Assembly: GCA_031002005.1 (NCBI GenBank)
Contig: JARYHS010009186.1
Coordinates: 181,314,437-181,378,436, forward strand
Direction: 5' to 3'
DNA from: Vandiemenella viatica
Taxonomy: Eukaryota; Arthropoda; Insecta; Orthoptera; Morabidae
Length of the DNA: 64,000 nt
A program made the position numbers and the translations under genes. Of the stretch, positions 1-20,900 are shown piece after piece; position 1 is the stretch's first letter; every line of letters begins with the position of its first letter. The notes beneath the pieces are model-generated. The model saw only the letters and a list, made by a program, of their open reading frames with translations, did no database searches and was not told the origin of the DNA.

Positions 1-53
1 AAAACAGAGGGGCCTAATAATTTATTAATCCGGCACTGCCTTTCATAGCCACA

Positions 54-2523
54 TCATAGGTTGCCAACCTTTTCAGCAGCCGGGCCAAATTCTAGAACTA
101 CAACTCTCTACCGGGCCGCATGCATAATTTTCTTGGAAAAAAAATTAATATTTTCATGAAGGAAAACAACACTTAAAATGTAATTAGATATTTAATGATA
201 TATTAAATATACACTTATCTTAATGCGACTTTTGACATTGTTTTACAGAACTAAGGGCATCAATGTTGATATCGAGAGAAGTTGTGGGTGGCTACACGCA
301 TAAAGTTCTCCAAATGAACATCGGTGATTCGTGTTCTGTTTTGAGACTTGATACTGTTCATCCGTCTGAAAAGCTGTTCACACACATAAGTGTTTCCAAA
401 TAGGGAAATAATCCGCAAAGCATGTTTATAAAATGAAGGATATTTCTCCTTGTACACAAATTTTCTGTAAAATTCTTCCAAATCAACCTGGTGGAATTTC
501 TCCTTGAGTTGTGCAATATGTTTTTTGAAATATTGAAATCGGTTTTCAAACTCAAGTTTTAAGTTTGATATGAGTGAACTCTACTTAATCGCCAACGTCT
601 GTGTGACGTCTGCTACCAATGATAGCGTGGAAAAATGAGTGAAATTTTTATTTTTCAGCTGTTGTTCCCAAAGCCCAAGTTTCATTTGAAACGCGGCAAC
701 AAAATCAAACATATCATTAGCCAATTGGTCTTTGCCTTGCAGACGAATGTTCAAGTTATTTAAATGGTTAGTTACGTCGACTATAAATGCGAAGTCACAA
801 ACTCAAGCCACGTCTTCAAACTCTGAGATACTTTTCAACTTGCTTGCATAGAATGATTTCTTCAAATCAAACTCTCTTTTTAACATTTTTGCACGGGACA
901 ACCATCTTACTTCAGTATAAAATGTAAGGTCATTATAGTCAGAATCCAAATGTTTGAGGAATTCTTGGAACTGACGGTGGTTCAACCCCTTCGATCTAAA
1001 GAAGTTCACTGTTTTGATAACCACGCTCATGACATGATCTATTTTTAACGACTTGGCACATAAATTCTCTTGATGAATAATGCAATGAAAATTTAATAAT
1101 GAGGTATTATCAAGTTTGCAGACTTCACTTTCAATCAGTTTTACTAAACCTTCATGTTTTCCAACCATTGCAGGAGCTCCATCCGTCGTCACGCCAGATA
1201 AGTTGTGAAGTTTTAACGAAAAACGATTTAACGTTGCTGTAACTGACTCTAACAAATCGCGTGCAGTTGTAACGTTCTTGAGTGGATATAGAGCCGATAA
1301 TTCTTCTGTTTTGTTTAAATGGACCTCTTAAGAAAATCGTTACTTGCGCAGTATCTGTGCTTTCATCCAATGCTAGAGAATAATATACGAAATCAGGCGC
1401 TCTGCTTTTCAAATTATCTTCAATATGTTTCCCAATGTATTCCACACGCCTGTTAATAGTTTGACGAGAGAGGCTTATTTTTGGACACATAATTTCAACG
1501 ATGCTCTCCAAACATTCCTTCACCATTTCACCATCTGAATACGGCTTCGATTTCTTGGCTAATATCGAGGTTACTGCATAGCTCGCTTTTACGTGGCATG
1601 TTGACTCTGCAGCAGTGCTAGTGAATATCTGTTGCTATACAGAAAGTTTTCTTTTTAAGTCATTTACCTGGTCTAATCGAAATTGTCCTTGGTACTCATC
1701 AAACTTATTTGCATGTTTAGTTTCATAATGCCGTTTCATGTTGTAGTCTTTCAATACAGAAACAGATTCTTTGCATATTAAGCATATGGGCTTAGCTATA
1801 AATTCTTCAAAAAAATAGTTAATTGTCCACTTATCCTGAAAACTTCTCAGTTCATCTGCAGCTTTTCGCTTCTTTGATCCAACATCTTTGCTAGTTGAAG
1901 CCATTATTTAATTGAACTAGAAAGAGAAATGAATGAAAGTCACGTGCTTGTATTTTGCAGAAACTACTACAATCTCAACGCTTAAAAATAATAGTACCGG
2001 GAATATATTCGGTAAAGATGCAACAACACGAATATCACGTATTTTTAACTACAGTAATACTTACATACACACGACGTATATAAAACAGAAACTAGTTCTT
2101 AAAAGTCGATCACGACAAAACGCCACAAATACTTCAGTACAACAGACACATGGAATTTAGACAATGCATTTCGAATCAAATACAACTATCAAAGCAAAGA
2201 GTGTACTTCCATCTATGGGTGGAAACATTAAAAGCTAGGAGATCAATAACCGACACAAGCGCTCCAAGAATCAGTCAGGCGAACCATTGACTTGCTGAAA
2301 GTTATAGGAACATTAGCCGTGATAATGCTCGGTTGTACACCCGCACTTTCCATCCCTGCAAGATCAATCGAGCGATGATCTTGGTTGAATATGTGCTTAA
2401 CTTAGTGTAGATATCACCATTGACAGTCAAAGCTTACGTATATAATGAATTAATGATACAGCTCCGCGGGCCAGAAAACGACCTACCGCGGGCCACTAAA
2501 TGACCTACCGCGGGCCATCCCTG
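54..2523 (-). mobile_element. Decayed hAT-superfamily DNA transposon
   Basis: This is a minus-strand hAT element of the kind whose transposase was domesticated as vertebrate GTF2IRD2. Its transposase remnants lie at 260-1904. The transposase-start end is at 2523, where the minus strand reads CAGGGATGGCCCGCGG followed by three spaced copies of a GCCCGCGGTAGG-like subterminal motif (about 2465-2515). The other end is vaguer: TTGCCAACC and two CCGGGCC motifs at 55-120 suggest it lies near position 54, but I see no 8-bp target duplication matching TATTACAT at 2524-2531. Superfamily is secure from the protein; the left boundary is a guess. Confidence 0.7.
260..1904 (-). pseudogene. Broken hAT transposase, GTF2IRD2-like
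   Basis: The coding remnant reads from an ATG at 1904 downwards. The first block (1904-1635) has a lysine-rich start and a BED-like zinc finger with C-x2-C (CLICK) and H-x4-H (HYETKH). The next block (about 1526-1320) contains ALDESTDT, which in this family carries the first catalytic Asp. The block 1255-803 has TTDGAPAM and HCIIHQENL, typical of the RNase H-like core. The final block (481-260) is the hAT dimerisation region (FGNTYVCEQLFRRMNSIKS). Frameshifts near 1630, 1320 and 800-480 break the frame, so no full transposase can be made. The family is normally one long ORF of roughly 600 residues. Function as a transposase is lost; no sign of domestication is visible. Confidence 0.75.
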
Positions 2524-3591
2524 TATTACATATTGCTTGAGCCTAATTTTCTGCTTCGTGCTTCCTTGCATAGTTCTCCTTCAAAAAAACTAAGAAACAG
2601 AAACAATATTGCCTTCTCGCCATGAGAAAGCTTCCAATGCAGTGTTTCTAAACGTTTTTCAACCCGAGGAACAGTAAATAGTCAAAAATAATGCGGCGGA
2701 TAACTAACTTACACGTGGCTAATTTTTTTTATCTGTCTATACATTATTAACATCTGGGACATATTAAGATAATAAATCTAAAACCATGTTTTGATTTTCT
2801 ACAAAAACAAAGTTATGACAGGGATTCGAGTGTGGAAGTTCAAGCACTCTGTTGATTTCCCTACGTTGTAACTAGCGTTACAAGAAAATCATGATGGGGT
2901 TGGTGAAACTGCAGTAGGCTCTGCAAGTTGAGCCAACTACGAGCCCATAAGAACTATACTCCGTAAAAGCGACGCCCCCAATCCTCTGCTACATGCAATG
3001 TAACAGCGTTCCAAAGGCGCAGCCTTAAAAATACTACCCGTTTTATTTTATATCAACAGTTCTAAAAATATTGACTGACAGTGTTTAAACGTCTGTGCAA
3101 AATTCTCTAAATGCTTCCTGTTAATTTAAATTCTGTTTTACTCTATTTAAAAACATATTTTAATATATCTTTTGGGGCGGCTCCACCTTACAGCGTTTAA
3201 CGACGAGCCGCTACTGATTTCATTGGTTCCACACTGCTGCCGGAATTAACTCAATAGCATATAAGAAGTTCCAATTTTATGACGATATAAACTACAACCG
3301 AAAACGTACATTACAAAATCAGAGTTATGAGCGTTTTAATAACAATTCTATTTAATTAAACAATTGCGAAAAATAAAGAGCGAGACATTTTATTGAAAGC
3401 TTCATTTCTGACCAGATCTGAAGATAATTGACATATAATCACTATTTTACTTTTTCCCATATATACTACTTCTTCTTCTTTTTTTTTTTTTTTTTAAAAA
3501 AAAAGAAGAGATAAATACTTCATACTTAGGAACTATTAGTTCATCAACAGCATTAATTATTGTGCCTTTAAACTGAACAGATCATTGAATA
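2524..3591. other. Intergenic stretch without recognised gene
   Basis: No long ORF or recognisable domain is present. A CAGTGTTTCTAAAC motif at 2640 resembles the tip of some non-autonomous hAT elements, and CTACTG near 3217 could be a partner, but the ends match over only about five bases. A T-rich/A-rich tract lies at 3478-3506. Confidence 0.5.
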
Positions 3592-4278
3592 TACGAGGGT
3601 GAGTCAAATGAAAACCTTAAATCTATCTTCTATATAATAAAAATGAATCGCCAACTGTGTTGCTGACCGCAAAACTCGAGAACGGCTCCACCAATTCGGT
3701 TAATTCTTTTTTTTATATTTTCGTTAAGGCACGAGGAAGGTTCTTATGGAGAGAAAAAACGCAGAAATTGGAACACTTTTCTTTTCCCTCAATCAAAACA
3801 AAACAAAGGCGCGTTAGGATTGTCTTTGGTATGACTTCAAGTTAATTAGGCTCCATGGATATTAATCTATGCCTGCATGTGATCAGCGAAAATAATATCA
3901 CTGACGTACGTGTTATCTTTATTTCCTCCGTGCGTGGCATTTTCTTGGTTGCTTTTAAACTTTCGCTTCTCTCGAAAACCAATTGTGTGTTTATTTGTTC
4001 AGTGTGTTTACATTTAGACCCATGCCGCCCATCCAGAAAGTTTCGACTATGAAAATAGAATTCATTAGTTTCGAAGGATGCAATATTGAGAATACCTAAC
4101 AAACAAAATCTATTACTGGTATTTTAGTTGAGAAGCGATATGCATTAGCATCTGACGATCGAGCCACACTTATCCTATTCAAAGTTGTGGTAACCCTTGC
4201 GGTGATGGGTTCCATTCGTTTTAAATTATGTTCAGGTAGAATTCATGATGATTGAATTGGGTATGAGTAATAATACTT

Positions 4279-4440
4279 TCTTACTTTTAAATAAATAAAA
4301 ATGAATCGCTAAATATGTCGCTAAGCTCAAAACTCGAGAACGGCGCGATCAATTCGGCTAATTTTTTCTTCTTCATATTTTCGTTAATACCATACAAACC
4401 AGTCAATCATAACAAAACAAAAAGGCGCGTTAGGATTATC
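4279..4440 (+). repeat. Second Helitron 5'-end copy
   Basis: From TC at 4279 the sequence repeats the start of the surrounding Helitron (3622 onward). Shared blocks include AAAAATGAATCGC, CTCGAGAACGGC, ATTTTCGTTAA and GGCGCGTTAGGATT, with many substitutions between copies. After the LTR element the similarity resumes at about 12180-12290 (GGTATG, ATGGATATTA, TGATCA.CGAAAATAA). The outer Helitron therefore has two tandem 5' ends, either from insertion of one relative beside another or from failed 5' termination. Confidence 0.7.
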
Positions 4441-5841
4441 TTGTAACGAGCCGCGCTGTCGCCACGTTACAAGGTGCATTTTTATTATATATGTAATAAT
4501 ATAAGAGTAATTTACATAAATCTTGGGCGACCACGTGAATAGATTTTTGTTGTAATTTTATAAAGTACGCAAGATTCCAAGTGAGGACTGTAATGAAATG
4601 GTGAACTTATACAGTGTATCGTAGCAAAGCGAATATTCAAGAATTATTGAGCTATGTAGGCTTGAAGCTAATCTTGGTGTTTCCAGAGCCATGGCGACAG
4701 GACGTCGCGGATTTGGGATTTTGCCAGACCACACACACTGCTCCCTGGGGATGGGTCACTCACCGAGCGGGAAAAGCCTGCCGTCCGAAACCCGAATGTT
4801 CTCTCGCCCGGCGAACTTAGCCGAATATGTCCGACCTCTGTTGGATTCTTTGGCCAAATCACATATCGAGGATATCACGTGACATTAGGTGCCGACCTGA
4901 AGGTCCAATCAAAATGAGCGTATAACTCAAAATCCTGGGAATTTTTGTTGTATGTGAGCTTCGAGACTACAAATGGGCGGAGCAAGAAGTTTCCTCGTGG
5001 ACCGAAGAGCGAGGAGCTGAGATTCTAGATTCTAACTTCGATCGCACCAGTCTGAGGTTGACTTGGAAAGTTGACTTCTTTCGCTAACTGCAGCTTGCCT
5101 TGCTGGAGCAAGCGTATCACCGCAACACAGCCGGTAATGCGATGATGCGCATTGCCAGACCAGAGATGCCTATAGCCGACTTGTGAGATAATCTCACATA
5201 TCGTGGGTCCGCTACACTCATCACAGACATCAGACGCAGAACTACAATGGTAATTGATTACGACCAAGCCATGTGATTGTGCATTCCGTGAAACAGAACC
5301 CGTAAGCGACTTTGAGAGGATAGGTCCATGTTCTCACTTTGTAATTGTAAAAACCCCTGAGCTAGCGGCATAATTTGCCAGAACTAGTTATTTTCGAATG
5401 ATATATTGTTCATTCTGGCGCCCATGATTTTCTTTTTAACTGTAAAGTCACAGTATTATGATGCCTTTGTCTGAGGTAGTCATAACTTGTATTTTTCATT
5501 GTTTCCAGTTGTCATTATTTCTTGCATTTTGATTCTGAGATATTTAAAAGTAAATATACAATTGTTTGCTTGCTCATGACGGCTAATTGTAACTCTGAGC
5601 GTTGCTTTTATGATTTTGCCAATTTGTGTTAATGTTAACGGTAAATTCGCTCAGACTTGTAATCGCCAGTGATAAGAAAATAAATGTCATATTGTGACAA
5701 TTTTTCCTAAATTCCAACTAACGTCGAGATTCTTGCTAAATTAATAAATTTCCACTCCTTCATATAAATTAAAATTAAAAATCCACAATTATTAATCATA
5801 AAGGTATGAAAGATAATTGTAACGTGGTTTGCCCACCAAGG
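4441..5841 (+). repeat. 5' long terminal repeat
   Basis: 1401 bp. It opens with TTGTAACG, which can pair with CGTTACAA at 4465-4472 to make a terminal hairpin, and TTGTAACG recurs near its 3' end (5817-5824). AATAAA near 5680 is a candidate poly(A) signal. No coding capacity is recognised; the small ORFs read within it are repeated in the other LTR. Confidence 0.9.
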
Positions 5842-6453
5842 CACCCACCACATAATGTCGCCCAACGCTGGTGCCAGATGAGACATTACTTCTTAATGTC
5901 TGCGAACTTGGTGGCACTAATTCAAATTAATACAGTTTGAGCCCAAATTCAGGAAAGTTTCATGGAATGTTGCACATGGTTTTTGGCTGTTTTATCATTC
6001 TTGTAGTCAATAGATATTCATACAAGATTTTATTTTGATGTTTCACTTATATTTTAATGCATAAAGTTCATTTTGTTTCAATGCATAAAATTTATTTTGT
6101 TTCAACGCATTAAAAGGAAGTTCATTTGTGTATTTCAATTGAGATGCAATACACTTTGTATTGTAACAATTTTGTGATCAGTTTAAAATTTTTAAATGAG
6201 TAACGTCAGTGTTGATTTCTTAATGCATGGTAGCTTCTAAGAAAATTAAAGACACGCATGTTTTGCCCATGTGTTTGAAAGTAAGTCTGCTTTCATGGTG
6301 TTGTGTTGCATGATTCATCGTTGCTTTTCTCTTGCTGTATTTTGGAGGGGTATATGTATTTGTGTGTATTGAAATTCGCGGTATTTTTGTTGTTGTGAAT
6401 CTAGATTTCGTCATTGCACAATTGCGGTGTAAATTCATTCGTTGTGTGTTCAT

Positions 6454-7539
6454 ATGAAGCTACGATCTCGTACGATAAAAGATTTCGATATGGAAGATCA
6501 GTCTGATAGGCAAAAATCTCCCGAAATCATGAACGATCAGGTTCAGTTAACGGAACAAAGCGAAATATTGGCTGCAGGGGAGGGGAACGTAAGTTCTGAA
6601 GTTCCGACCCACTCATATAGTTCGCAGTCTACTTTGTCGCCACAGGAAGATATGGAAAATTTTCCTTCACCTGTCGGTGAGACGACACAGAATACTCCCG
6701 CACATTCAGAACAGACCCAACAAATATCACAAATGCCGGTAGAATCACCACCCCTATCGCCGCAAATGCTAAACATGTTAATGACTGCAATCAATTCACT
6801 AAAAGAGGAAAATAAGAGAAGTTCGGATTTGCTTAGCCAATCGAATCAACAACTAAAGCAGGATTTAAGCCAACAATTAAGCCTGCAAATTAATTCACAA
6901 AAACAGGAATCAAGCCAGCAATTTCTGGAATTAAACAAGCGTTTTGATTCACAAAAGGAGGAAAATAAGAGAAATTCGGATTTGCTTAGGCAGAGTTTTG
7001 ATTCGCAAGCTGCGATATTAACAAATTTGGACGTGAAATTATCCACCTTCCGTTCTGAAACACAAAAACACACAGAGGTATCAACTACCGCGATTACCGA
7101 TGAATGGATCGAAATTGCACAAGTAGGACAAACCCAAAATACAGACCAACAGCTGGTAAACTCTGAGGAATGCGAGCATTCCACCATTACGTCTGTCGAT
7201 TGTATGGTCGAAGCAGTTCCGGAAATACAAATTTTCAATCGGACACTGCTCGAAGACGTGACAGTGACGCGGCAGATTACTGAGCATAGTGTCAGCAAAA
7301 GCGTTGATACAGTGCAAAAGTCACTGCAGATCGCAGTTGTGAGTACGGAATGCGTCTGGTCAGACGCGCAGTTCCGGAAAACTTGTGTAAAGCGTTTCGG
7401 TTTGAGTATCCATGGAACAGAAAGGCATGATAGCATATACACCGCCATGATCGAAAAGCAACGGGAAATTTTTCTGTGCCCGTTCAGGTCAAAAGACAAG
7501 TATTTTGCTGCAGAAACTAAATTCTGGCAGGATCAATGA
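6454..7539 (+). CDS. Gag-like protein of the LTR element
   Basis: An intact 361-residue ORF, starting at the ATG at 6454 because upstream in-frame codons lack ATG. The first 90 residues are acidic and rich in Ser, Pro and Gln. Residues about 105-195 form a Gln/Lys/Glu-rich coiled coil with an internal repeat (SLKEENKRSSDLL and SQKEENKRNSDLL). The last third is mixed and ends near KYFAAETKFWQDQ. I see no CCHC knuckle and no major homology region. The gag assignment rests on position just after the 5' LTR and on the coiled coil, as in many insect retroelements. It may act as a structural protein for particle formation. The frame is unbroken, consistent with the young LTRs. Confidence 0.6.
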   Translation: MKLRSRTIKDFDMEDQSDRQKSPEIMNDQVQLTEQSEILAAGEGNVSSEVPTHSYSSQSTLSPQEDMENFPSPVGETTQNTPAHSEQTQQISQMPVESPPLSPQMLNMLMTAINSLKEENKRSSDLLSQSNQQLKQDLSQQLSLQINSQKQESSQQFLELNKRFDSQKEENKRNSDLLRQSFDSQAAILTNLDVKLSTFRSETQKHTEVSTTAITDEWIEIAQVGQTQNTDQQLVNSEECEHSTITSVDCMVEAVPEIQIFNRTLLEDVTVTRQITEHSVSKSVDTVQKSLQIAVVSTECVWSDAQFRKTCVKRFGLSIHGTERHDSIYTAMIEKQREIFLCPFRSKDKYFAAETKFWQDQ

Positions 7540-8861
7540 AATCAGCTGGAAGGGAAGACAGACGAGAATGTTGTGTAACCCAGGTACCTGGTTGTCAGCT
7601 GAGCCCATTAGCAAGGCTAAGGGATCCGCTAGCACAATGCGTCTTCCGAGAATTTTGTTAGGGAGCGCAGATGTTGGACTTAGGGTCATCACTGAGTGCC
7701 AAACGTTTCTCGCCTCGCATCAGCGTTTTATCGCATTCAATAAATATGCGATGAGCGTGTATTCCGAAAGGAATTATGTGATAAAAAGAATCCATGGACG
7801 TCTCAAATTCGTCTTGTAGGCATTGTTCAACAAGTTGTGTAGCATGCCAAATACGATTGACGAAAAGGCTGACTATGAATTGACCGATTTGAATCATAAA
7901 AAAAAGGGGGAAATTAAATGTACAGTACACATTCTTTTAGGTTAGACGCCTTACCGAAATTAATCATGCTTGAAAAACGCCGATGCCAGGTTTCCGCTAG
8001 TCTAAACCGTCTGTTTTGCTGGAAAGATTAGATAAACGGAAAATTAAAATTCCAGTTACCAAATTTGCACTTACAGTTAAAGCTACTTAGGATATTTCCA
8101 TATTCGGAATTTTTAATGCTTATTTCGCTATTCCGAACTTTATATTTTGTCCACGTGAAATATTAATAGTCACTTTTGACTTTCACGCTGTTAATTGGAC
8201 TTGATTTGATAAAAATCCTGAAATATTAAATGTTTTCCTGAGCCAGATAAATTGATACGCACTCGCGGAAAATGAAGCGCCATTAGCAGCACAATTTCTT
8301 GTCTTCGCAATCACAATGAATCTGACAGCGATACAAATATTGTGATATGCTTTCTAAGATGTATTTTGTGACATAAACGAAAAGGGTTTCAACATTTTGT
8401 GATGCATGAGTTCGATGTAACGTTTTACCTTAGGTAGTTGCATTATATCTTTTCTGAGCAGAAGTGTACAGCGAGCGTAATATCGCTTTGTCTGTGTTGA
8501 TCGAAGATCGCAATGTTATCTGTCAACGTAATTTACTTCTTTGTTTTGTGTATCTGTAAAGGGTGGCTAACGTGCCATAGATAATGCCCTATAGAACACG
8601 AAACCTTGCCAGAAAGATTTGTTTAAATTGTGTTGGTCATCACAGAAATTAGGAATCTTAAGTTGAAGGATTACAGATATACAGGAGAGTTTTCACAATA
8701 CCTTGCTGTTATTTTGCTAACGATAGAGCGAGGTCGAAGAGCAAAAAGTTAAAGGCGACTGCATTTGTAAAGGCTAAAGGGAAAAACTTTATTTACGGGA
8801 TATATTCAATAATTCAGCTAACTTTGCAAGTTAAGGTAATTATATTTGATGCTAACTTCAA

Positions 8862-9068
8862 TTGAAAAGGAATTTTGTATATGATAAATGCACAGATGGT
8901 GAAGACGTGAACAATAAGATTATTGGTGATATCGACGTTTTTCTGCTATATTTCTGGCCTTATTCGGTTGCCAGAGTGATCTCGAAGAATTGTTATTTGT
9001 TGACGGACGGACAAACCGAGATCGGGCCTCATAACGCCCGGAACTTAAAGCCATTTCATACAAAGTAA
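8862..9068 (+). pseudogene. Remnant of pol C-terminus
   Basis: The last 45 codons read PYSVARVISKNCYLLTD then GPHNARNLKPFHTK. This matches the pattern at the very end of Gypsy-type pol, where the integrase tail ends in a GPY/F-like strand and a V-N-x-R-x-LKPY-like motif. No upstream integrase or reverse transcriptase sequence is recognised between 7540 and 8861. The scrap marks the right edge of a large deletion that removed pol. Confidence 0.5.
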
Positions 9069-9672
9069 CGGTTTCGAAAGAGTGGGGAAACAGCTACCAT
9101 CGAACAGCTGAGGTCATTAGTGCAGGTAAGCAGTGGCTCAACCGGCAGGTTCCGAGAATTGGCAGGTAGCGAATACCCCAGGATGAATGAGAAGGGAAAC
9201 AAATCGTTCCACGCCTCGTTCTAGCGGTATTTCGCGTACCCTTACTGTAAATTGTATAGTATTCCGTAAATTAGATTAAAACTATTGTTGGACAGCATAC
9301 ATTTAGCTCAGAATTGTGTGCACTCAACGAAAATAATTTCAAAGTTTATATTTGTGCTTTATATAGATTTGTAGTATTCTGCTAGCGTGAAATCTCAAAA
9401 TTGCTTTGTATTGGCAAACGGAAAACCTGAGATCGAACCGTTCTATGCACAAAGCTTACGACCTTTTTCATACAAGCTAAAGAAGCATAAGTGTATAAAA
9501 GGAAAATATTCGCTAACTGGGATGGATTTTCGGCTTAAAACGTGGAGTAGACGGACATGTTAAGAGGGTTATAATAACTCCTAAATAAAGAGAAAATTTT
9601 ATTCTTTGAATGTCGAGATAATCTCGAGTCATCAATAGACCCATTGTGAAGGAATCGTAATGTTACTGAGGA

Positions 9673-10053
9673 ATGATAGTTACGCTATTCATTATCCTTT
9701 CATTTATGTGCGGAATGGTTATTTGCAGGGTCCGCTTGTATGCAAAGATGCTACAGCGACTTTGGTTGACGATGAAAGTTCACGTCAAACCGCATAATGT
9801 GTATAATGTCTCATATGGGAATGGTAAATTTTATAGAAATTCCATTACATATACCCATGAGCAAATACAGTTTCCTTTCGCCATGAAATTCGCAATCACT
9901 TCACAGACGGTATATTACAAGTTAGAGATGTCGACCAATGAAAGACTAATTAGGAGACCACCTAACATTCAACGAGTAAGGTTCATAATTTACGTAACAA
10001 ACGAAAACATGTACTTACATCGTTCATTCCACACCACGTTGAATTATAAGTAA
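9673..10053 (+). CDS. Small ORF in env position, unknown function
   Basis: An uninterrupted 126-residue ORF from the ATG at 9673, between the pol remnant and the 3' LTR. The first 18 residues are strongly hydrophobic (MIVTLFIILSFMCGMVIC) and could be a signal peptide or membrane anchor. The rest is basic with many Tyr, Asn and Arg and no motif I recognise. Errantivirus-like insect elements carry env at this place, so it may be an env remnant or a chance ORF. It is much shorter than any complete env. Confidence 0.35.
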   Translation: MIVTLFIILSFMCGMVICRVRLYAKMLQRLWLTMKVHVKPHNVYNVSYGNGKFYRNSITYTHEQIQFPFAMKFAITSQTVYYKLEMSTNERLIRRPPNIQRVRFIIYVTNENMYLHRSFHTTLNYK

Positions 10054-10754
10054 ATGCCGCGTCATTAAAATCTAAGATTACAGTTAGTGATATTTGACCA
10101 TGAACACGAACACATCTCTCTGAAATGCTTATTGAATTAACCGTCGGTCATGACGAAAATCACGTCACCGAATCCGACTAAACTATTCCGTTGTTTTGAG
10201 ATTAAAACCGCGCAATGTAATGAGATATTTTACGCTCACCTCTAGCATCTTTATGGATGTTTGTTGAAGGCAGAATTATTTTTATGCACATGAGTAAAAC
10301 ATCACGCTAAATTGTAAATACAATGTATAGTTCAACCACTTTCTGCATAAGTGTTCTGACAATGTTTTGTTTTATTAATGTGTTTCATTTTATTAATTTA
10401 ATGATAAGATTTGATACAAGTTATTTTCAAGATTATTATTTAAACATGTATGTAAATAATTTATTTTCATGTATATTTTAGTATTGTGTTTAATATAACT
10501 TTGTATTTGGGAAGGCTACCTGAATTCACGTGCTTCTGTTTGTAAAGAATTGTAAGACGGCCAAAAGGACATATGCTCCCGTTATATATTCACCTTACAA
10601 GGCAGGAATACCGATGGTTATTGGAATCACATTTAAAATTAATGTAATTATAAAAATGCTTAAGTTTTTGTTGAGTCACAATGGAGATAGAATTAGGTAG
10701 TTAAAAATAAAATTATTGTACCATAATTTCATTTTTCACCAACGGCCGGCCATA

Positions 10755-12157
10755 TTGTAACGAGCCGCGCTGTCGCCACGTTACAAGGTGCATTTTTATT
10801 ATATATGTAATAATATAAGAGTAATTTACATAAATCTTGGGCGACCACGTGAATAGATTTTTGTTGTAATTTTATAAAGTACGCAAGATTCCAAGTGAGG
10901 ACTGTAATGAAATGGTGAACTTATACAGTGTATCGTAGCAAAGCGAATATTCAAGAATTATTGAGCTATGTAGGCTTGAAGCTAATCTTGGTGTTTCCGA
11001 GCCATGGCGACAGGACGTCGCGGATTTGGGATTTGCCAGACCACACACACTGCTCCCTGGGGATGGGTCACTCACCGAGCGGGAAAAGCCTGCCGTCCGA
11101 AACCCGAATGTTCTCTCGCCCCGGCGAACTTAGCCGAATATGTCCGACCTCTGTTGGATTCTTTGGCCAAATCACATATCGAGGATATCACGTGACATTA
11201 GGTGCCGACCTGAAGGTCCAATCAAAATGAGCGTATAACTCAAAATCCTGGGAATTTTTGTTGTATGTGAGCTTCGAGACTACAAATGGGCGGAGCAAGA
11301 AGTTTCCTCGTGGACCGAAGAGCGAGGAGCTGAGATTCTAGATTCTAACTTCGATCGCACCAGTCTGAGGTTGACTTGGAAAGTTGACTTCTTTCGCTAA
11401 CCTGCAGCTTGCCTTGCTGGAGCAAGCGTATCACCGCAACACAGCCGGTAATGCGATGATGCGCATTGCCAGACCAGAGATGCCTATAGCCGACTTGTGA
11501 GATAATCTCACATATCGTGGGTCCGCTACACTCATCACAGACATCAGACGCAGAACTACAATGGTAATTGATTACGACCAAGCCATGTGATTGTGCATTC
11601 CGTGAAACAGAACCCGTAAGCGACTTTGAGAGGATAGGTCCATGTTCTCACTTTGTAATTGTAAAAACCCCTGAGCTAGCGGCATAATTTGCCAGAACTA
11701 GTTATTTTCGAATGATATATTGTTCATTCTGGCGCCCATGATTTTCTTTTTAACTGTAAAGTCACAGTATTATGATGCCTTTGTCTGAGGTAGTCATAAC
11801 TTGTATTTTTCATTGTTTCCAGTTGTCATTATTTCTTGCATTTTGATTCTGAGATATATTTAAAAGTAAATATACAATTGTTTGCTTGCTCATGACGGCT
11901 AATTGTAACTCTGAGCGTTGCTTTTATGATTTTGCCAATTTGTGTTAATGTTAACGGTAAATTCGCTCAGACTTGTAATCGCCAGTGATAAGAAAATAAA
12001 TGTCATATTGTGACAATTTTTCCTAAATTCCAACTAACGTCGAGATTCTTGCAAAATTAATAAATTTTCACTCCTTCATAAAAATTAAAATTAAAAATCC
12101 ACAATTATTAATCATAAAGGTATGAAAGATAATTGTAACGTGGTTTGCCCACCAAGG
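10755..12157 (+). repeat. 3' long terminal repeat
   Basis: 1403 bp, the partner of 4441-5841. I count roughly nine differences, over 99% identity. Most are single-base length changes in short runs (for example TTTT/TTT after GGGA, CCC/CCCC before GGCGAAC) plus three A/T or C/T substitutions near the 3' end. Such identity implies a recent insertion. The usual purine-rich tract is not obvious directly upstream of 10755. Confidence 0.9.
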
Positions 12158-12330
12158 TATCCACCACAATCTCTGGTATGCTTTAAATTTGATTAGACTG
12201 TATGGATATTAGTATATTCCTGCCCAAAATACAGATCGAAGAAAAAAAAAAACGGTTTGCGTGTGATCAACGAAAATAAAATCACTGCCTGTTAATCAAA
12301 CAAAACAAGGATGCTTTGTGATTATCTAAG

Positions 12331-13058
12331 GGATTGGAAAATGATCAATCTGAAGAAATGTTTTCAAAGCAACTCATTGGCATTGGTAATGACAAAATCC
12401 CAGCAGACGTTTTGACTGGCTGCATTACATTTCCTGTCAATTCTTTGGTTGAACGAACGATCTATATTACAAAGACAAAAACACGGATGTAACTGAAATA
12501 AATTTTAAAATTCAAAATGAAGTTGCCAGTTAATTAAGGACATACAAATCAGTTGATTGTGCAACTAACCAAGATGATGTCGTGAACTATCCACCAGAAT
12601 TTTTGAACTCACTGGATTTGCCATGATTGTTGCCTCATAATCTTCAATTAAAAGTAGTATCGGTGGTCATAATGTTGCGAAATATCAACCAATCGCGTCT
12701 TTGTAATGCCACACGGCTAGCAGTCAAAAAATTACTGAACAATGTGACTGAAGCAACCATTCCGAAGGGATAATATAAGGGAGAAGATGTGTTGATACCT
12801 CGCATCGCAATGGTACCAACTGACGCATCATTTGAATTTAAACGACTGCAATTTCCAGTGCGGCTTGCCTTTGCTATGACTATAAATAAATCCCAGGGTC
12901 AGTCATTGAGTGTTTGTGGCGTTAATCTTGAAAACCCATGCTTCTCTCATGGACAGTTGTATGTTGCCTGCTCCCGCGTTGGAAAACCGTCAGCTTTATT
13001 TGTTTACGCGCCAAGTAACCAAACAAAAAATACCGTGTACCATAAAGCATTACAATAA
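12331..13058 (+). pseudogene. Helitron helicase C-terminal remnant
   Basis: The open part at 12789-13058 contains LAFAMTINKSQGQSL, the late helicase motif of the Pif1-like domain of Helitron replicases, followed by LYVACSRVGKPSALFVYAP, the normal C-terminal end. Upstream, 12331-12790 can be read in broken frames as earlier Pif1-domain sequence (NDQSEEMFSKQL.GIGNDKIP, then a degenerate tail). The Rep nickase domain and the helicase N-terminal half are absent. It cannot drive transposition; its position just before the 3' end is normal for a Helitron. Confidence 0.82.
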
Positions 13059-13217
13059 AAATATCATCACCCTATCGTATTACTAAAGTCTTGCAGTGTA
13101 CGAAACAGAAAACTTATTTTTGTAAGTAAACGTTGTATATTATTGAGACATTAAATCAATGTATAAAGTGATAACTCTATAATACGTTTTATTTATTTAT
13201 TTTTTCTATTGGACTAT

Positions 13218-13264
13218 GACAGACCAATACCTTTTGACAGAAAGAAGTCTGTCGGGTCAGCTAG
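13218..13264 (+). other. Helitron 3' hairpin and CTAG terminus
   Basis: GACAGAC (13218-13224) pairs perfectly with GTCTGTC (13247-13253) across a 22-nt loop, then seven bases lead to the terminal CTAG. A hairpin shortly before CTRR is the termination signal of Helitron rolling-circle transposition. Confidence 0.75.
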
Positions 13265-13383
13265 TTTGTAATAAAAACTGGAAATTTCGCGCTGTTATCC
13301 TGTAAGTTGGTAAGCGTGCAGAATGGCCTGTAGGTGACAGCATAGTGCAGATGCACAAATACCGTCGCACTATCAGTATAAAG

Positions 13384-14458
13384 ATGGCTGCCCCACTTGA
13401 GACTTGCACCAGGGAAGAACAGCGTTCTGTTATTCGGTTTTTGAGTAGTGAAGGGGTGAAACCTATTGAAATTCATCGAAGAATGTAGGTTCAGTACGGT
13501 GATGCATGTTTGTCACAGCAGCAAGTCTACGAATGGAGTAGGAAGTTCGCAAATGGTGTGACTTCAGTGGAAGATGCTCCTCGCCCAGGTCAGCCATAAC
13601 GAGTTGTGACTCCACCGAACATTGCAGCAGTTGAAGCCATAGTGATGGAAAACCGCCGAGTGATACTGAATTACATTGCAGCATGTTTAAAGATTAGTCA
13701 TGGTTCAGCACACCACATTGTGCATGATGTGCTCCAGTTGCACAAAGTGTCTGCAAGATGGGTGTCACGGCAGCTGACTCCTGAAATGAGAGAACGATGT
13801 GTTGATGCTTGTGAAGAACTACTTCGGCGTTTTGAACGAGAAGGTGATGGCTTCCTTGCAAGAATCGTTACTGGGGACGAAACCTGGGTTCACTTCCACC
13901 AACCGGGAACGAAAAGAGCTTGCAAGGAATGGCGCCAATCCTTATCACCAAAACCAAAGAAGTTTCGAACAGAACCATCAGCAGGGAAGGTTATGCTGCC
14001 TCTCTTTTGGGACGAAAAAGGCGTCATTTTGGAGTATTACATGCCTTGAGGGACTACTGTCACCAGTGCATCATACACAGATCTCCTAAAAAATTATCTT
14101 CGGCCTGCAATCAAATCAAAGCGACGTGGATTGCTATCATCAGGTGTCCTTTTGCAAAATGACAATGCATGGCCCCACACTGCCCGTACAACAGTTGCAA
14201 CAATCCCAGACCGGCATTTTGAGTGTCTTCCTCATTCATCAAACTCACCAGACCTTGCCCCAAGTGATTTCCATATGTTTGAACCACTCAAAGAAGCAAT
14301 GGGAGGAAAGAAGTTCCGTACTGATGAAGAGGTACGCCACTAGGTGCATGAGTGGTAGCGCGGACTACCAAAAGAATTTTTTTTCTAAAGGAATTTATGC
14401 ACTTTATAAGCGCTGGAGGACTTGCATTGAGCGTGGGGGAGATTATGTTGAAAAGTGA
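13384..14458 (+). pseudogene. mariner transposase, D34D type, inactivated
   Basis: Translation starts at the ATG at 13384 (MAAPLETCTREEQRSV). The helix-turn-helix half covers about 13384-13780, ending with the linker-like SARWVSRQLTPEM. The catalytic half shows all three Asp contexts: VTGDETWVHF (about 13870), LLQNDNAWPHTA (about 14155) and SPDLAPSDFHMF (about 14250). The frame is interrupted by stops near 13485, 13597, 14047 and 14341, and the C-terminal YKRWRTCIERGGDYVE segment is read from another frame up to 14458. Family members are about 345-350 residues long. The damage makes it non-functional, which fits its place as host of two later insertions. Confidence 0.9.
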
Positions 14459-14532
14459 TACAGCTTTGTATCTCTTCTGCACAATAAAAATATTTTTAAA
14501 AAAATTAAGGTTTCAATTGACTCACCCTCGTA

Positions 14533-15118
14533 ACATAAAGATCTTGCTTTTCAGCATGTTTTACAGTGTGTTCGATATCTGTGAAAAGCAATAGCTAAAG
14601 ATGACAAACCGGCTACGAATTAGGAGGTCCTTTGGTGTTAGTAAAATGCGAATTGGTAATAACAATTCCCAGACGAACTATTCGTTTTAAGAGTCTTATT
14701 ACGTTTGGTTCGCGTATTCTGTTTATTTTAGTGTACAAAATTGAAGAACCAAGTAATCGAAATCAAAGGATAAAACAGAATCTATATACGATTGTAGCGT
14801 AATCTTTTGTCAATATTTCTTCAAAGGAGTGGTCATTTCAAATACAGTTATCTGTATGTATATTTCTTCCAGTTCGAATCGAATTTAATTTACTGCTCTT
14901 TTCCTCGGTATATATAAGTCAAAAGCCATTTCCACATATTTTAATCTAGACTATTAGCTCTAAAAATTTGAAAACATCATCCAAATTGCTGGGCTATTGA
15001 CATCAGGTCAAACCTTAGGACATACACAGCTTGTTTATAAATTTATAATAGTATAGATTTACGCACCATCAGATTATTATAAAAGTATACCAGAAAAGGT
15101 CAAGTTTAATTTAATTGC
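14533..15118. other. No recognised feature
   Basis: A/T-rich sequence between the mariner and the next LINE fragment. Both strands carry frequent stops, and no element end, RNA gene or domain is recognised. Confidence 0.5.
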
Positions 15119-15660
15119 AATGGAGCACAGGCTCCGGTGGCAATTTCCCTACACCTCCATCTCCCCCCTACCCTGCACCCATCTATATTTGCCCTCAACA
15201 AATTTTATCTTTAAATTCTTTCAACGTTTTCGGTAAATTATTTATCATTTCTCTTAGTAACTAATTCCAATCCCTGACACCCTTCCCTAAAAAAGAGAAT
15301 CTTCCCACACCCTTATGCCTGAAATCGAGTGCCAGCTTGTGGTCATGGTCATCTTTTCCCTTCCATGCACTACTTTTCATACCTATTGCAATATATTTCC
15401 AAGCCTCAACGCCAGTATATGCCCTGTACACTTCCATGACCCTCCTCATGTCTTGCAATGAATCCCATTCCAGCTCCTTTATCATATCCGTCACTGATTG
15501 CATTCTGCAATAATTTCCAGAAACAAATCTAGCATCCCTTCTTTGCACCCTCTCCAACTCCTGTATTTGATACGTAAAATGAGGGTCCATTACTACACCA
15601 CCATATTCAAGCAATGGTCTGACCAAAGTTTTGTAACCCAATTCCTTTACTTCTCTCGTT
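15119..15660 (-). mobile_element. LINE 3' fragment (reverse transcriptase C-terminus)
   Basis: The minus-strand frame at 15641-15261 encodes KTLVRPLLEYGGVVMDPH then IQELERVQRRDARFV and LEWDSLQDMRRVMEVYRAY, the region after the reverse transcriptase fingers and palm in Jockey/CR1-type non-LTR retrotransposons. The copy continues as noncoding 3' sequence to about 15119. The 5' part is missing, as usual for 5'-truncated LINEs. The same family occurs again in pieces at 20300-20900 and 28741-32275. Confidence 0.8.
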
Positions 15661-17929
15661 GCCTTAAGAACAAATTATTAACATATAAATTATTATATAG
15701 AGTTTTTTCCACACACTTTCCCAGTTTTTCGTACTACAGCTACTCTGCTCCATTAAAAAGTCTTTCGTAAAAATATTTTATTAGCTTGTATGATTATTCT
15801 ATTTGCTACATTATTATCGTCATTATTTATTCAAAAGAAACATGAAAATACGAGCTGATCGTTTCATTGCGACAGATTTTTGATTCTATACATTTAGCTC
15901 AATAAATTAAGCAGCCTAGTGTATCACCTTCCCTGGAGTAGACTAAAAAAGTAAATGTGTATGATACCAGCTTTTGGGCTATTTAATCCGCTAGTGAGAT
16001 AATTCCAGAAACTTGGTACGTCCTAGTGTACGTCACACACACACACACACACACACACACAAATATGGAATATGAAGTGAATATCTTGACCACGAGCTGC
16101 CAGACCACTCAAATCCCGACTGACATTACCAGCTTAATAACTATGTCAGGAAAAAGCTACAATTTACTGTACTTTCACGATTCTAAATGCAAACAAACAA
16201 TTATTTGAAATCAATTTTTCCTTAGTTTAGAAAAACCCTTAAGCCTATTTCAATTACCAGACTTTCGTTATGTTCCTAAGCATTAATAAACATGAGACGA
16301 AAATGTTTGTATGTAAAAGAATGTATGGTAACTTACTTTTTTATGCAGATTCTTTCATTTCTATTTATGACAAATGAAAAAAAAATATTTCAAGTAATAT
16401 TACTGAAAACTGTACACAATTTGTTGTTTTTGCAGATGAAAACATGGTTTTAAACGAAAACATTCTAGAGAAATTGCGTTTGAGGACTTTGAATGTTAAT
16501 CTTCATCCGGTGAGCTTCGGAAATATTTAAAGATTTATCAGATATAAGCTGAGACGGAGGCTATAGATGAAGTGAACCGCGGAAATGTGTTTTGAATAAC
16601 CATGCAAAAAGCGGCGCTGAAATTGCAGATAAAGAAAAATAACGTCCATGGTCAGTATCTGATACGTAATATCTCAGGAACGATTGCTTATTTTCGTTGA
16701 CAAAAAACAATATTTCAGTCACAAGTAAACCGAAATTAGACCTAAAAGACGCTCGGAGGCTTCGGGCGAAACGTTGCTATGATTAACATCACCAAAACGC
16801 GCCTTAATCTAGGACTAAAGCAACAAGGTATTACTAACAACACTGCTTTCACCTTCGACTCTTTGTGTCCAGAAAATTTGTCTTGCTAGTATATTTAGTC
16901 CAAAGAGTTTGGCGCCCAAATATTATTCTTCGACGTTGGAGAGCAATATGCACGTGGAGGAATTCCTTTTGGGAAGTTGAATACGATTTCTCTAGTATCG
17001 TGGTGTCATGAAGTGGAATACGGAGTCCTACCTTTGCCAAAAATCACTAGACTTCATATGGTAGACAGTGATAAACCGTCTTCTTAATCAATAAAAAGAA
17101 TCAAAATCAGAGTTACATTTTTCTTTTATTAAATTAGGACAAATGCCACTATTAATTTAACAGTGAAAGACAATAAGTATTTCATTTAATTTTTTCCTCA
17201 ATAGTCTGAATTTATGTTTATAGTACTTTTCAGTTTTCTCTGAAATGATAATAATAAAAAAAAATGTTCTTTTGAACGTCATGTACTAGAAATCTGCGAG
17301 AAATCAAAATCTTAGTGATTAATTGGTTTCATTCCTCTCATTCAGGAATAAGTGAGTCTAGTATTTGCTTGTTTTGCAGAGGATAAAGAGGTGGTGACCA
17401 GGTTCTGCAAAACTTGCTTGAGTTTGATGGATGGTATTAGATTCACAATATGCGTACAAAATTATCAGATACAGTTGTTCGAGAGAGTGTAAAAGACGGT
17501 TGTTAGGTTTTCCTGGGGGGATTATTAAATAACTCATTAGTAAATTAATACTATAAAGAAACTGCCATGTGAGCTGTAGGAAGAAATGAGATGGGTGAAG
17601 AGAATGGTGGCCATATGCAAAGCTGACGGCGATGCGACGAATAATTAGGAATTGTATGCAGAAGAAAACAGAGGACTTTTCCCACAAATTAGCACTTTGC
17701 TGAAGTCGTAATATAAGGAAAAGTTTTCCTCAGTAGCCAGAGGCATTAAAAATTGAAAGTGACAGAGGAAGGTTATAAATATTACGTTTGTTTAAGTAGA
17801 TATGTTGCTTAACAGGACAGCTCCATCGTGATTATTATTAAGAAAACGTAGTTATCTGAACCTCTGATAAGGGTTGAATAATCACAAAAAACAGCACTTC
17901 AGCTCAATAATTTTACCGTTCAACGGCAG
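15661..17929. other. Intergenic stretch, only a microsatellite recognised
   Basis: Apart from the CA repeat at 16034-16060 I see no gene, element end or domain. The short ORFs here have no recognisable composition or motif. Confidence 0.5.
16034..16060. repeat. (CA)n microsatellite
   Basis: A pure CA dinucleotide run of about 27 bases. Confidence 0.95.
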
Positions 17930-18520
17930 TTCTATCATTACCGTGGCGCCAAAATCTGATGATGAATTCTTGTAGAACTCGACGAAACAAATCGAAAATA
18001 AAGAATAAATTTTTTTGATATCTCGCTTGGTTTTCGAGTTATAGTATGTTAGAAATCAGTCATAGGTATATTTCCTTCTGCTTGTGGTGTTTTTTCTTCT
18101 GGTCCAGGCCGTATTTCAACCTAGCAACAATCACTAGGAAGAAAAATAAAACACCTGTAGTGCATTTCCACCGTGTAGATATTGTAGTTTTGGTGAAAAA
18201 ACATTTTCTGGTCCAGGCCGGATCTCACCCTAACCTCCTCACTTTTCAATATCTCGAGAACTAAGCGAGATATCAAAAACCTTTGTTCTTTATTTTCCAC
18301 TTGTCTCGTCGAGTTACATACGAATTCATCATTAAATTTGGCTATACCGAAACTTTTCTTCTGGTCCAGGCCGTATTTCAACCTAATTACGTCAATTTTG
18401 AGATACAATATCTCGAGAACTAAGCGAGATATCAAAACACTTTATTCTTTACTTTCAATTTGTCTCGTCGAGTTCTATAAGAATCAATCATCAGATTGTG
18501 GCGCCACGGTAATGATAGAA
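17930..18520. mobile_element. Foldback element with internal tandem repeat
   Basis: The left arm (17930 to about 18045) and right arm (about 18405-18520) are inverted copies over about 110 bp, beginning TTCTATCATTACCGTGGCGCC. Between them, the block GGTCCAGGCCG occurs at 18104, 18211 and 18363, and a unit of about 152 bp running from that block to TCTCGTCGAGTT is repeated in tandem. CCGTTCAACG lies just outside both arms as an imperfect direct repeat and may be the target duplication. No protein is encoded. A non-autonomous DNA element is the best description; the superfamily is unknown. Confidence 0.7.
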
Positions 18521-18617
18521 TCCCCGTTCAACGCCGCAGTTTTAAAATATTATTAAGAAACAGAATTTTATAATTTTTCAGTTCGAAACCGGATAGAAGG
18601 TTTCTTTTCTTTATATA

Positions 18618-19463
18618 CAGGGCGTTCGCCGGGAAACGCAACCCACTGTTAGCGCTACAAGGAAGAAACTGCTCCCGGCAAGCGAGCGGTCAGCTTCCGG
18701 CATTGTTCGACCGTCGGCCGCGGACTATTTCATAATAATTACGCTTCATAAACTTGTATGCGCTAAGCATTTAAATGTGGCGTTATTATTAGCTTACCTT
18801 ATAAAAGATGCTGGAAGTGTTGACCCTCTTGTGAAATGCACATTTCACATCTTCTGAACATATTTCGAGACACACGCTGCCCTAACTGACTTAATGATTT
18901 TTTGGGTGACTGTTCTAGTCGAAAAGCGATATCGTCAATTTTCTCCTCTGTGAGAATACGGTTGACCGACAGTCTCTTTTTGTTAAAAAATGAACCCGTT
19001 TCTCTTATTTTTTTAACCAGACGCAGAATTTTTGATTTAGCTGGCAGTAAAGCGCCAGGAAATTCGCGACGAAATTTACTGCGACACTTTTTAAACGACT
19101 TCTTCTTCACATATGTATCGTAGAGAAATATTCTCTGTTGCAAACTGTAACGTACCATAATTTTACTCACACTCAAACACGGTACAGATTAGTAAGAGTA
19201 TGAAGCCCCAAACCAGCCAAACCGCAAAGAAACGTTTATTCAGAACACTGATTAATAAGAGACTGAAGTCACAAACTATCTACAATGCAAAGAAACCGTT
19301 CTTAACAATGTAAGGGTCACTGCACGGCACTGTTGGGGCAGCGGAGGTGTTAAACAGTGCGGTAATTCACGGTGCCGTGTGGCGGAAACTGCTGGCACTA
19401 CTGACCGAGCAAGTTGCCGACGGCAACAGACTGGGAGGGTAGCGTTTTCCGGCGAACGCCCTG
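18618..19463 (-). mobile_element. Short TIR element with DUF4817-type ORF, copy 1
   Basis: The ends are CAGGGCGTTCGCCGG (18618) and the inverted CCGGCGAACGCCCTG (19463). Both are flanked by TATA (18614-18617, 19464-19467), consistent with a TA-type target. The length is 846 bp. The minus strand carries a small ORF with the N-terminal helix-turn-helix of a transposase. A second copy of nearly the same length lies at 58173-59019. No catalytic domain is present, so the element must depend on a full-length relative. TA targeting suggests a link to the IS630/Tc1/mariner group. Confidence 0.8.
18799..19158 (-). CDS. DUF4817-like helix-turn-helix protein
   Basis: From the ATG at 19158 (MVRYSLQQRIFLYDTYV) the ORF runs 119 residues. 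The pattern YSLQQRIFLYDTYV...KKCRSKFRREFPG followed by KSKILRLVKKIRETGSF and LTEEKIDDIAFRLE is that of DUF4817, a DNA-binding helix-turn-helix module common in insect transposon proteins. In full proteins a DDE domain follows; here the ORF ends at about residue 120 with HFQHLL. It could still bind the element's ends, for example as a repressor, but that is inference. Confidence 0.65.
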   Translation of the reverse strand: MVRYSLQQRIFLYDTYVKKKSFKKCRSKFRREFPGALLPAKSKILRLVKKIRETGSFFNKKRLSVNRILTEEKIDDIAFRLEQSPKKSLSQLGQRVSRNMFRRCEMCISQEGQHFQHLL

Positions 19464-19467
19464 TATA

Positions 19468-19859
19468 AAAAAAATTGGTTGGACTTAAAATTTCCGCATT
19501 TTTAAGCAATATACTTGCAATGGAGTATATACTTCGATGGTAATTTCTGCAAATATCTATTTTACATCGTTTTCACCTTAAATTGTTTGAGTGCCATTTC
19601 CCCTTTGATGTTTCCAAACTTTAACTCTAAATACAGTACTGTACTTTCAATGTTTCTGGTAATTTATTCCTGTCATTCCTGTAACTACAAAAGGACATTT
19701 TTACTCTCCTTTAGGCCTGAAATGGCTGTTTTCATCTTTTCCTTCTCATGTAGTGCTACATATTCTACCAATATCCTTCCTAGAAACATCATCTATATAC
19801 GCTTCTCACCCTCCACTTGTTTTCCAATTACTCCCAATCCAGGTCATTTATCACATATA
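19468..19859. other. No recognised feature
   Basis: Sequence between the DUF4817-type element and the next LINE fragment. A plus-strand ORF of about 127 codons at 19515-19898 is Phe/Ser/Leu-rich and matches nothing I know. Confidence 0.4.
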
Positions 19860-20020
19860 AAAAAGGGTTCGGTATTCAAGGACACATATCTCCAATAAGC
19901 TGCCAACACATATTAAATGTCTAGCAGATGATAAGATTAAATTCAGGAAAAAATTTAAAGAACTTTTGATTCAAAACTATTTCTACTATGTCGAAGAATT
20001 TATTTCGGTAACACGTTAAT
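19860..20020 (+). mobile_element. LINE C-terminal fragment
   Basis: Across a frameshift this reads NKLPTHIKCLADDKIKF then KKFKELLIQNYFYYVEEF, the characteristic last coding block of Jockey/CR1-type reverse transcriptases. It is only about 160 bp. Confidence 0.65.
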
Positions 20021-20299
20021 ACGTAGGAACTTACTGTGTACCAAATTTCATACCGATAGCACAATTTTTGTAGGGTCCGATGTATTAACGCGGAGCCTTT
20101 ATTTCTAAGGAATCTACAAAATAACTGCCAGTGGATTGTGTAAATGTAGTTAACAAAATTAACGTACCATGTATGTTGTGACTACATCTTCTGTACTATT
20201 TTGTTGTGTTATTGTTTAACTGTATACCGACCACTTTCCACATCCCACAGAGCCAGTCTCTAATATTGGGCTCAATGGAAAATGAATGTATAGTTACTG

Positions 20300-20900
20300 A
20301 TAAAGTTCTACGGTAATTTCCACAAACAAATTTGTTTGCACATCACTGCACCTATTTCAAATTCTGTATCTGATACCAAAGTTGTGGATTCCATACACTA
20401 CACGTCTATATTGAATCAAGGGTCTGACCAAAGTTATGAAACTCAGTTCCTTCTCTTCTATGCATCATCTCTTATCACTCTCCAACCATGGAGGAAGGGG
20501 CCTCCATGTCTCCAACAAATGAATGATTTTTTAATCTCTTCCTACCGTCCGCCAAGTTGAGAGTGTCGTCAAACGTTATGCTAAGATTGTTACATTTAAG
20601 TTCTTCAAAAAGCAATTCCTTCCCCCCTCCCTGCCCCCCCACTATAAATCATAAAAACAATTAATCTTCTATCTGTGAACCTAACAGATTGTATCTTTTT
20701 AACATGTTTTCTACCTTCTAAGAATTTATCTACCAAGTTGTAACTTATTCACCAACTTCAATTTTTATCTTATTCAGCATCACTTTATAAGCTACTGTGT
20801 CAAATACCTTAAAAAATCTAGTACTATACTATCAAGTTGACTTCTACTATCGTATTCACCAGAAGTATCTTGTGTACAAAAAGAAAAAAATTCTGTCATT
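20300..20900 (-). mobile_element. LINE fragment (reverse transcriptase core)
   Basis: At 20305-20500 the sequence parallels the LINE at 15500-15660 (the block GGTCTGACCAAAGTT is shared). Higher up, about 20760-20900, the minus strand can be read as FFKVFDTVAYKVMLNKIK, resembling motif A of reverse transcriptase. It is in the same orientation as the 15.1-kb copy and is heavily damaged. Confidence 0.6.

What the first reader, a model, noticed from the sequence alone, without database searches (positions are those of the whole stretch)
3592..14532. Three-level transposon nest with exact boundaries
A mariner (TA-flanked, 1294 bp when closed up) contains a Helitron inserted between A and T. That Helitron contains an LTR retrotransposon with a TATC target duplication. 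All six boundaries can be read to the base, so the order mariner, Helitron, LTR element is fixed. Few nests allow both ends of a Helitron to be proven by the restored host sequence.
Basis: partly seen in the sequence, partly recalled or inferred. Interest (0 to 1): 0.75.

Follow-up and report, generated by a model that had tools for sequence, protein, structure and literature searches.

The report
Nested insect transposons, one pre-insertion copy
A mariner transposon was hit by a Helitron, the locus was then copied in inverted orientation nearby, and only one of the two copies later received a long retrotransposon, so the joins and the order of events can be read directly; the elements themselves are of ordinary kinds.

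Summary
The nest is real and the order mariner, Helitron, LTR element is right. Mariner and Helitron joins hold against other genome copies: 27 of 27 mariner copies examined (of 39 listed) run straight across 3621/13265. The LTR join was misread. Proof is an inverted copy of the locus on the same contig, about 26 kb before the window's start, with the same mariner, Helitron and flanks and a single ATCT but no LTR element. The Helitron is itself composite: a second Helitron 5' end lies inside it, as in 26 of 29 other copies examined. Mariner, Helitron and left flank differ alike between the two arms (2.5-2.7%), so they predate the duplication. The LTRs differ at 5 of 1409 positions, all within 108 bases, a set of letters also found in one other copy, so the LTR insertion is younger. 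A well-ordered example of known processes, not a new kind of element.

The parts
3592..3593 (+). TA target duplication, left side of mariner
   Evidence: inverted ends
3594..3621 (+). mariner, left 28 bases with the terminal inverted repeat
   Evidence: joint to 13265 continuous in 27 of 27 other copies examined
3622..4291 (+). outer part (A) of the composite Helitron; starts TCTA after A3621; right end approximate
4284..4441 (+). inner Helitron 5' end (B) inside the composite, 82% like 3627-3727; its own first bases are lost in this copy; left end approximate
4438..4441 (+). ATCT target duplication, left copy
4442..5852 (+). 5' LTR (1411 bases, TG...CA)
5853..5878 (+). presumed primer-binding region; likeness to a lysine tRNA end is recalled, not tested
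6433..7539 (+). gag-like open frame, 368 aa from stop to stop; 'gag-like' is by position and look; no relatives found
8856..9563 (+). two diverged copies of a short protein motif (15 of 32 identical) that by recall looks like the tail of a retroelement integrase; no Pfam match
10756..12168 (+). 3' LTR (1413 bases, TG...CA)
12169..12172 (+). ATCT target duplication, right copy
12173..13264 (+). rest of Helitron, ending CTAG before T13265
12322..13058 (+). broken C-terminal helicase remains (Pif1/Helitron type)
13236..13253 (+). hairpin GACAGA/TCTGTC, 11 bases before the Helitron end
13265..14530 (+). mariner, remainder with broken transposase frame and right inverted repeat
14531..14532 (+). 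TA target duplication, right side of mariner
1..20640 (+). arm of an inverted duplication with indels; other arm seen at C5206:181281505-181293284 of G000; neither limit was found

Best explanation
Four steps. (1) A mariner inserted at a TA. (2) A composite Helitron inserted inside it between A and T, without target duplication. (3) The locus with its flanks was copied in inverted orientation on the same contig. (4) An LTR retrotransposon (7727 bases, gag-like frame, no pol detected) inserted into the Helitron of the window's arm only, duplicating ATCT. Steps 1, 2 and 4 are shown by the joins and by copies without the insert; that step 3 fell between 2 and 4 is shown by the sister arm, if it is a duplication and not an allele. 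Inferred: the composite Helitron arose earlier when one Helitron (B) sat inside part of another (A) and rolling-circle transfer began at A's 5' end and stopped at B's 3' end. The mariner transposase and Helitron helicase frames are broken and the LTR element shows no pol, so this copy most likely does nothing now beyond marking history.
For: Sister arm: window 1738-4441 and 12169-15225 match it, and the two blocks overlap there by exactly 4 bases, ATCT. Arm-to-arm substitutions are alike for left flank 50 of 1829, mariner 35 of 1287, Helitron 48 of 1912. LTR pair: 5 substitutions in 1409. Mariner joint continuous in 27 of 27 copies examined. Helitron: 25 of 29 other copies fetched end CTAG before T, one of them the sister arm; 22 of 29 run through the ATCT site without a gap at the matching place. 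Composite in 26 of 29, sister arm included; inner A|TC kept in 12 of 29.
Against: The arms could be two haplotypes put in one contig by the assembler; the order would stand but step 3 would not. The right flank differs less (10 of 693) than the rest, unexplained. No copy of A without B was found; that search did not complete. The Helitron hairpin is weak by energy (13 of 200 shuffles fold as well).
Confidence: 0.93

Rival explanations
1. One reading: LTR element 4441-12157 with TATC target duplication.
For: TATC does stand at 4437-4440 and 12158-12161. Closing there gives as many identities (75) with the related stretch at 3785-3880 as closing at ATCT does.
Against: It leaves 11 bases of matching LTR outside the element; LTR copies elsewhere end 11 bases further on; closing there needs a 10-base gap against the related stretch, closing at ATCT none; the sister arm closes at ATCT.
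Confidence: 0.01
2. The sister arm is not a duplication but the other haplotype of the same locus, misplaced and inverted in the assembly.
For: Same contig, inner ends at most about 21 kb apart, and one arm lacks the LTR element as a young heterozygous insertion would.
Against: About 2.5-2.7% substitutions and several large indels are much for two alleles, and the inverted placement would need a further error. The sequence between the arms was not seen, and no reads were tested.
Confidence: 0.15
3. The composite Helitron formed by tandem head-to-tail insertion or internal rearrangement, not by insertion of one Helitron into another.
For: Tandem Helitrons are reported in plant and bat genomes (passage seen); one copy (L069) starts directly after a CTAG.
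Against: In 12 of 29 copies the inner start is A|TC, with no CTAG just before it, as at an ordinary insertion site.
Confidence: 0.3

Closest known systems
mariner (Tc1/mariner superfamily, Mos1-like)
   Same: TA target, short inverted ends, transposase match to Mos1 (PDB 4u7b, E 4.8e-14), 34 residues between the last two aspartates
   Different: frame broken, split by the Helitron; subfamily not assigned
Helitron (Helraiser/Helibat type)
   Same: 5' TC, 3' CTAG, A/T flanks, hairpin 11 bases from the end as described for Helraiser (passage seen); helicase remnant best matches Helraiser (PDB 7lcc, E 7.2e-19)
   Different: no Rep domain found, a second 5' end inside, present mostly as the composite in the copies fetched
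non-autonomous LTR retrotransposon
   Same: long LTRs TG...CA, 4-base target duplication, many copies (2793 candidates, 40 scored)
   Different: no pol detected in the pieces scanned, gag-like frame without relatives, no clear polypurine tract by eye; superfamily not assigned

Membership tests
mariner | TA target duplication and inverted terminal repeats | tested here: met
mariner | transposase with DD34D | tested here: met
   34 residues between the last two D; Pfam Transposase_1 E 1.1e-07, above its cut-off; first D not tested apart
Helitron | 5' TC, 3' CTRR, insertion between A and T without duplication | tested here: met
   outer 5' A|TC in 9 of 11 other copies where it was visible, read by eye (exceptions L069, L084)
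Helitron | hairpin near the 3' end | tested here: inconclusive
   stem present; 13 of 200 shuffles fold as well, z -1.80; stem letters recur in most copies printed, with changes in L066, L080, L087 and L088 among others
Helitron | Rep and helicase in one protein | tested here: inconclusive
   helicase remains only; looks like a deletion derivative
LTR retrotransposon | LTRs with TG...CA and short target duplication | tested here: met
   4-base duplications also in 3 of 4 other elements readable on both sides (L027 does not match)
LTR retrotransposon | primer-binding site and polypurine tract | tested here: inconclusive
   tRNA-like stretch after the 5' LTR, identity recalled; no polypurine tract seen by eye before 10756
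LTR retrotransposon | gag and pol | tested here: inconclusive
   no pol domain in 16 of the 52 open stretches that were scanned (only chance-level matches below Pfam cut-offs); gag-like frame without relatives; the other 36 were not scanned; so filed only as a non-autonomous element

The most novel reading that the evidence does not exclude
The composite Helitron is a natural record of directional rolling-circle transfer: a Helitron inserted into another in the same direction, later transfers began at the outer 5' end and stopped at the inner 3' end, and this chimera then spread as a family; the window's lineage later lost the inner start by a short deletion.
Probability: 0.35. Interest if true: 0.45.

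Novelty: new member of a known kind. Interest (0 to 1): 0.3.

Why it matters
It gives a locus where mariner, Helitron, duplication and LTR insertion are ordered by direct evidence, useful as a worked standard for nest annotation. It also shows how a false target duplication can arise from two changed letters in an LTR end. If the composite reading holds, the Helitron family is a natural test of where rolling-circle transfer stops.

Tried and rejected
Rejected: TATC as target duplication. Rejected: a one-off Helitron chimera, since 26 of 29 other copies fetched share the structure. Rejected: plain dating of the LTR element by its 5 substitutions, since they lie within 108 of 1409 positions (p about 0.0001 by 200,000 draws) and the same five letters recur in one other copy, L034.

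Led nowhere: viral contigs, 4 scans, no related locus. Bacterial and archaeal contigs, 2 scans: none confirmed; one Paenibacillus locus (L001), not examined, held to be chance. Relatives of the gag-like frame: 0 of 2597 candidates scored. tRNA scan of the window: 0. Paper search listed 0; one search listed 1, not read.

Not answered: copies of the outer Helitron part lacking the inner one, and how far the duplication extends.

Full report
What was claimed.

Mariner. The inverted ends 3592-3613 and 14511-14532 match at 21 of 22 positions; the next best place in the window reaches 14 of 22. TA stands outside each end. The frame at 13600-14049 matches Mos1 transposase (PDB 4u7b, E 4.8e-14) and Pfam Transposase_1; 34 residues separate the last two aspartates in the next piece. 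The frame is broken into several pieces. A search of the window's own genome (3.72 Gb, 8965 contigs) found 2150 candidate places and scored 40, listing the window, 39 other long matches and one short one. I examined 27 of the 39: in 27 of 27 a 20-base stretch across the joint 3621/13265 is continuous with at most 3 edits. A first, stricter script gave zero gap in 23 of 27: L003 was not found by it, L007 has an A-rich tract, L008 was matched on the wrong strand, and L057 has 4 extra bases past the joint. All four show the joint, L007 with 3 edits and L057 with 2.

Helitron. It begins TC after A3621 and ends CTAG before T13265. A search with 12173-13264 scored 40 of 2113 candidates; 30 loci were fetched, one of them the window itself (L060). 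Of the 29 others, of which L061 is the sister arm described below, 25 end CTAG followed by T; L088 ends CTAC, L066 lacks the end at that place, and L084 and L086 gave no match to the pattern. Outer 5' ends were visible in 11 copies besides the sister arm: 9 read A|TC, L069 reads G|TC right after a CTAG, and L084 reads A|TG (by eye). The helicase remnant 12774-13058 best matches Helraiser (PDB 7lcc, E 7.2e-19), and 12627-12770 matches the Pif1 2B domain. A hairpin lies near the end, but by energy it is weak: 13 of 200 shuffles fold as well.

The LTR element. The two LTRs align over 4442-5852 and 10756-12168, beginning TGTAACG and ending ACCACA; 1409 positions pair, with 5 substitutions and 6 gap columns. 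Of 30 LTR loci fetched (of 40 scored; L010 is the window's own), 28 show both ends by the script's pattern, all beginning TGTAACGA and ending ACCACA; L020 and L034 did not pass. Four-base target duplications are seen in 3 of 4 other elements whose two flanks were at hand: L017/L013 ATCT, L025/L031 GGTG, single LTR L035 ATGT; the single LTR L027 does not match over 4 bases. In the Helitron family, 22 of 29 other copies run without a gap through the ATCT site at the matching place, with up to 6 substitutions in 29 letters; in the other 7 the script's best match lay elsewhere, in the outer stretch (L080, L085, L088, L089), in a further related stretch (L070, L071), or at a place not resolved (L084). 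In the interior, 16 of the 52 open stretches were scanned and gave no pol domain; the gag-like frame found no relatives among 2597 candidates.

The sister locus. The second-best Helitron match, L061, lies on the same contig about 26 kb before the window's start, inverted. The stretch L090 (C5206:181281500-181291499), reversed, matches window 1738-4441 (95.9%) and 12169-15225 (96.3%), and in it these two blocks overlap by exactly 4 bases: one ATCT, no LTR element. The match reaches window 1 and window 20640, with further indels; its limits were not found, and the inner ends are at most about 21 kb apart. Both mariner ends, both Helitron ends and the TA sites are present in both arms, with one change in the left mariner end. 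This is a direct pre-insertion site.

Order and age. Between arms, substitutions are 50 of 1829 in the left flank, 35 of 1287 in mariner, 48 of 1912 in the Helitron and 10 of 693 in the right flank. Mariner and Helitron thus differ as much as the left flank and were there before the duplication; the lower right flank is unexplained. The LTR element is absent from the sister arm, and its LTRs differ at only 5 of 1409. Those 5 lie within 108 bases (p about 0.0001). The 3' LTR letters, ATATT against TCTCC, recur as a set in 1 of 30 loci (L034), and the first three (ATA) in 6 of 30. They are therefore probably family variants brought in together, by gene conversion or a similar exchange (inference), and not mutations since insertion.

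A nest within the nest. Window 3627-3727 and 4284-4387 are 82% alike: the Helitron holds a second Helitron 5' end. In 26 of 29 other copies, sister arm included, the outer segment stands before the inner one (only its last part in L065, at a distance in L076); L066, L086 and L087 lack it there (my tally). In 12 of 29 the inner start still reads A|TC; in 11 of 29, the window's group, the first bases of the inner start are lost; 6 gave no match. Of the three inner-only copies, L087 begins A|TC, L066 C|TC and L086 G|TC. I propose that one Helitron inserted into another and that transfer then ran from the outer start to the inner end. Helraiser work reports that the 3' hairpin acts as a stop signal and that a missing stop leads to use of another one downstream (PMC4778049, passages seen); that an inner stop would be used when met first is my inference. 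Tandem Helitrons are reported (PMC5876387, passages seen). The test for outer copies without the inner one did not complete.

Literature. Seen as passages only: PMC6544945, PMC4778049, PMC4344730 and PMC5876387. The first two use empty sites as evidence. Searches gave listings; I make no claim that this locus or family is absent from print.

Host. By recall of protein style the window looks like insect DNA; among the 120 listed relatives of the transposase piece (of 697), the one with an organism in its name is from the termite Cryptotermes secundus (81% identity). The species is not known to me.

Verdict. A real, well-resolved nest of ordinary elements, with a corrected LTR boundary, a sister locus that shows the order, and a composite Helitron that deserves a follow-up.

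Noticed in passing
4442-5852 and 10756-12168: All 5 LTR substitutions sit in the last 116 bases of the LTR, and the 3' LTR's letters recur as a set in L034; looks like gene conversion or similar exchange at the 3' LTR end.
   Followed up: partly
1-20640 and C5206:181281505-181293284: Inverted duplication with arms at least this long and inner ends at most about 21 kb apart; limits not found.
   Followed up: partly
17935-18523 and 18618-19463: Stretches in the window arm absent from the sister arm; the first belongs to a repeat with many copies, so further insertions after the duplication are possible.
   Followed up: no
L090 (sister arm): About 250 bases in the sister arm, absent at the same place (near 15213-15225) in the window arm, resemble 25048-25271 and 26755-26949 of the window.
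   Followed up: no
55-2524: A repeat of about 2.5 kb with many copies, 86-94% alike in the longer matches; frames on the minus strand at 803-1634 look by recall like a hAT-type or domesticated transposase.
   Followed up: no
5853-5876: 12 of 14 readable 5' LTR copies, the window's included, carry the same TGTCGCCC... stretch after the LTR, while L028 and L037 carry TGGCGCCC...; by recall the latter fits a lysine tRNA primer better.
   Followed up: no
L062, L064, L065, L067-L071, L073: Nine of the 40 scored Helitron copies carry a second 3' end (last 118 bases repeated) beyond the first.
   Followed up: no
48760-49857 (minus) and 62769-63314 (minus): Frames that by recall look like another mariner transposase and another Helitron helicase end.
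   Followed up: no
38319-41221: Tandem-like array of units of roughly 540 bases, 87-94% alike.
   Followed up: no
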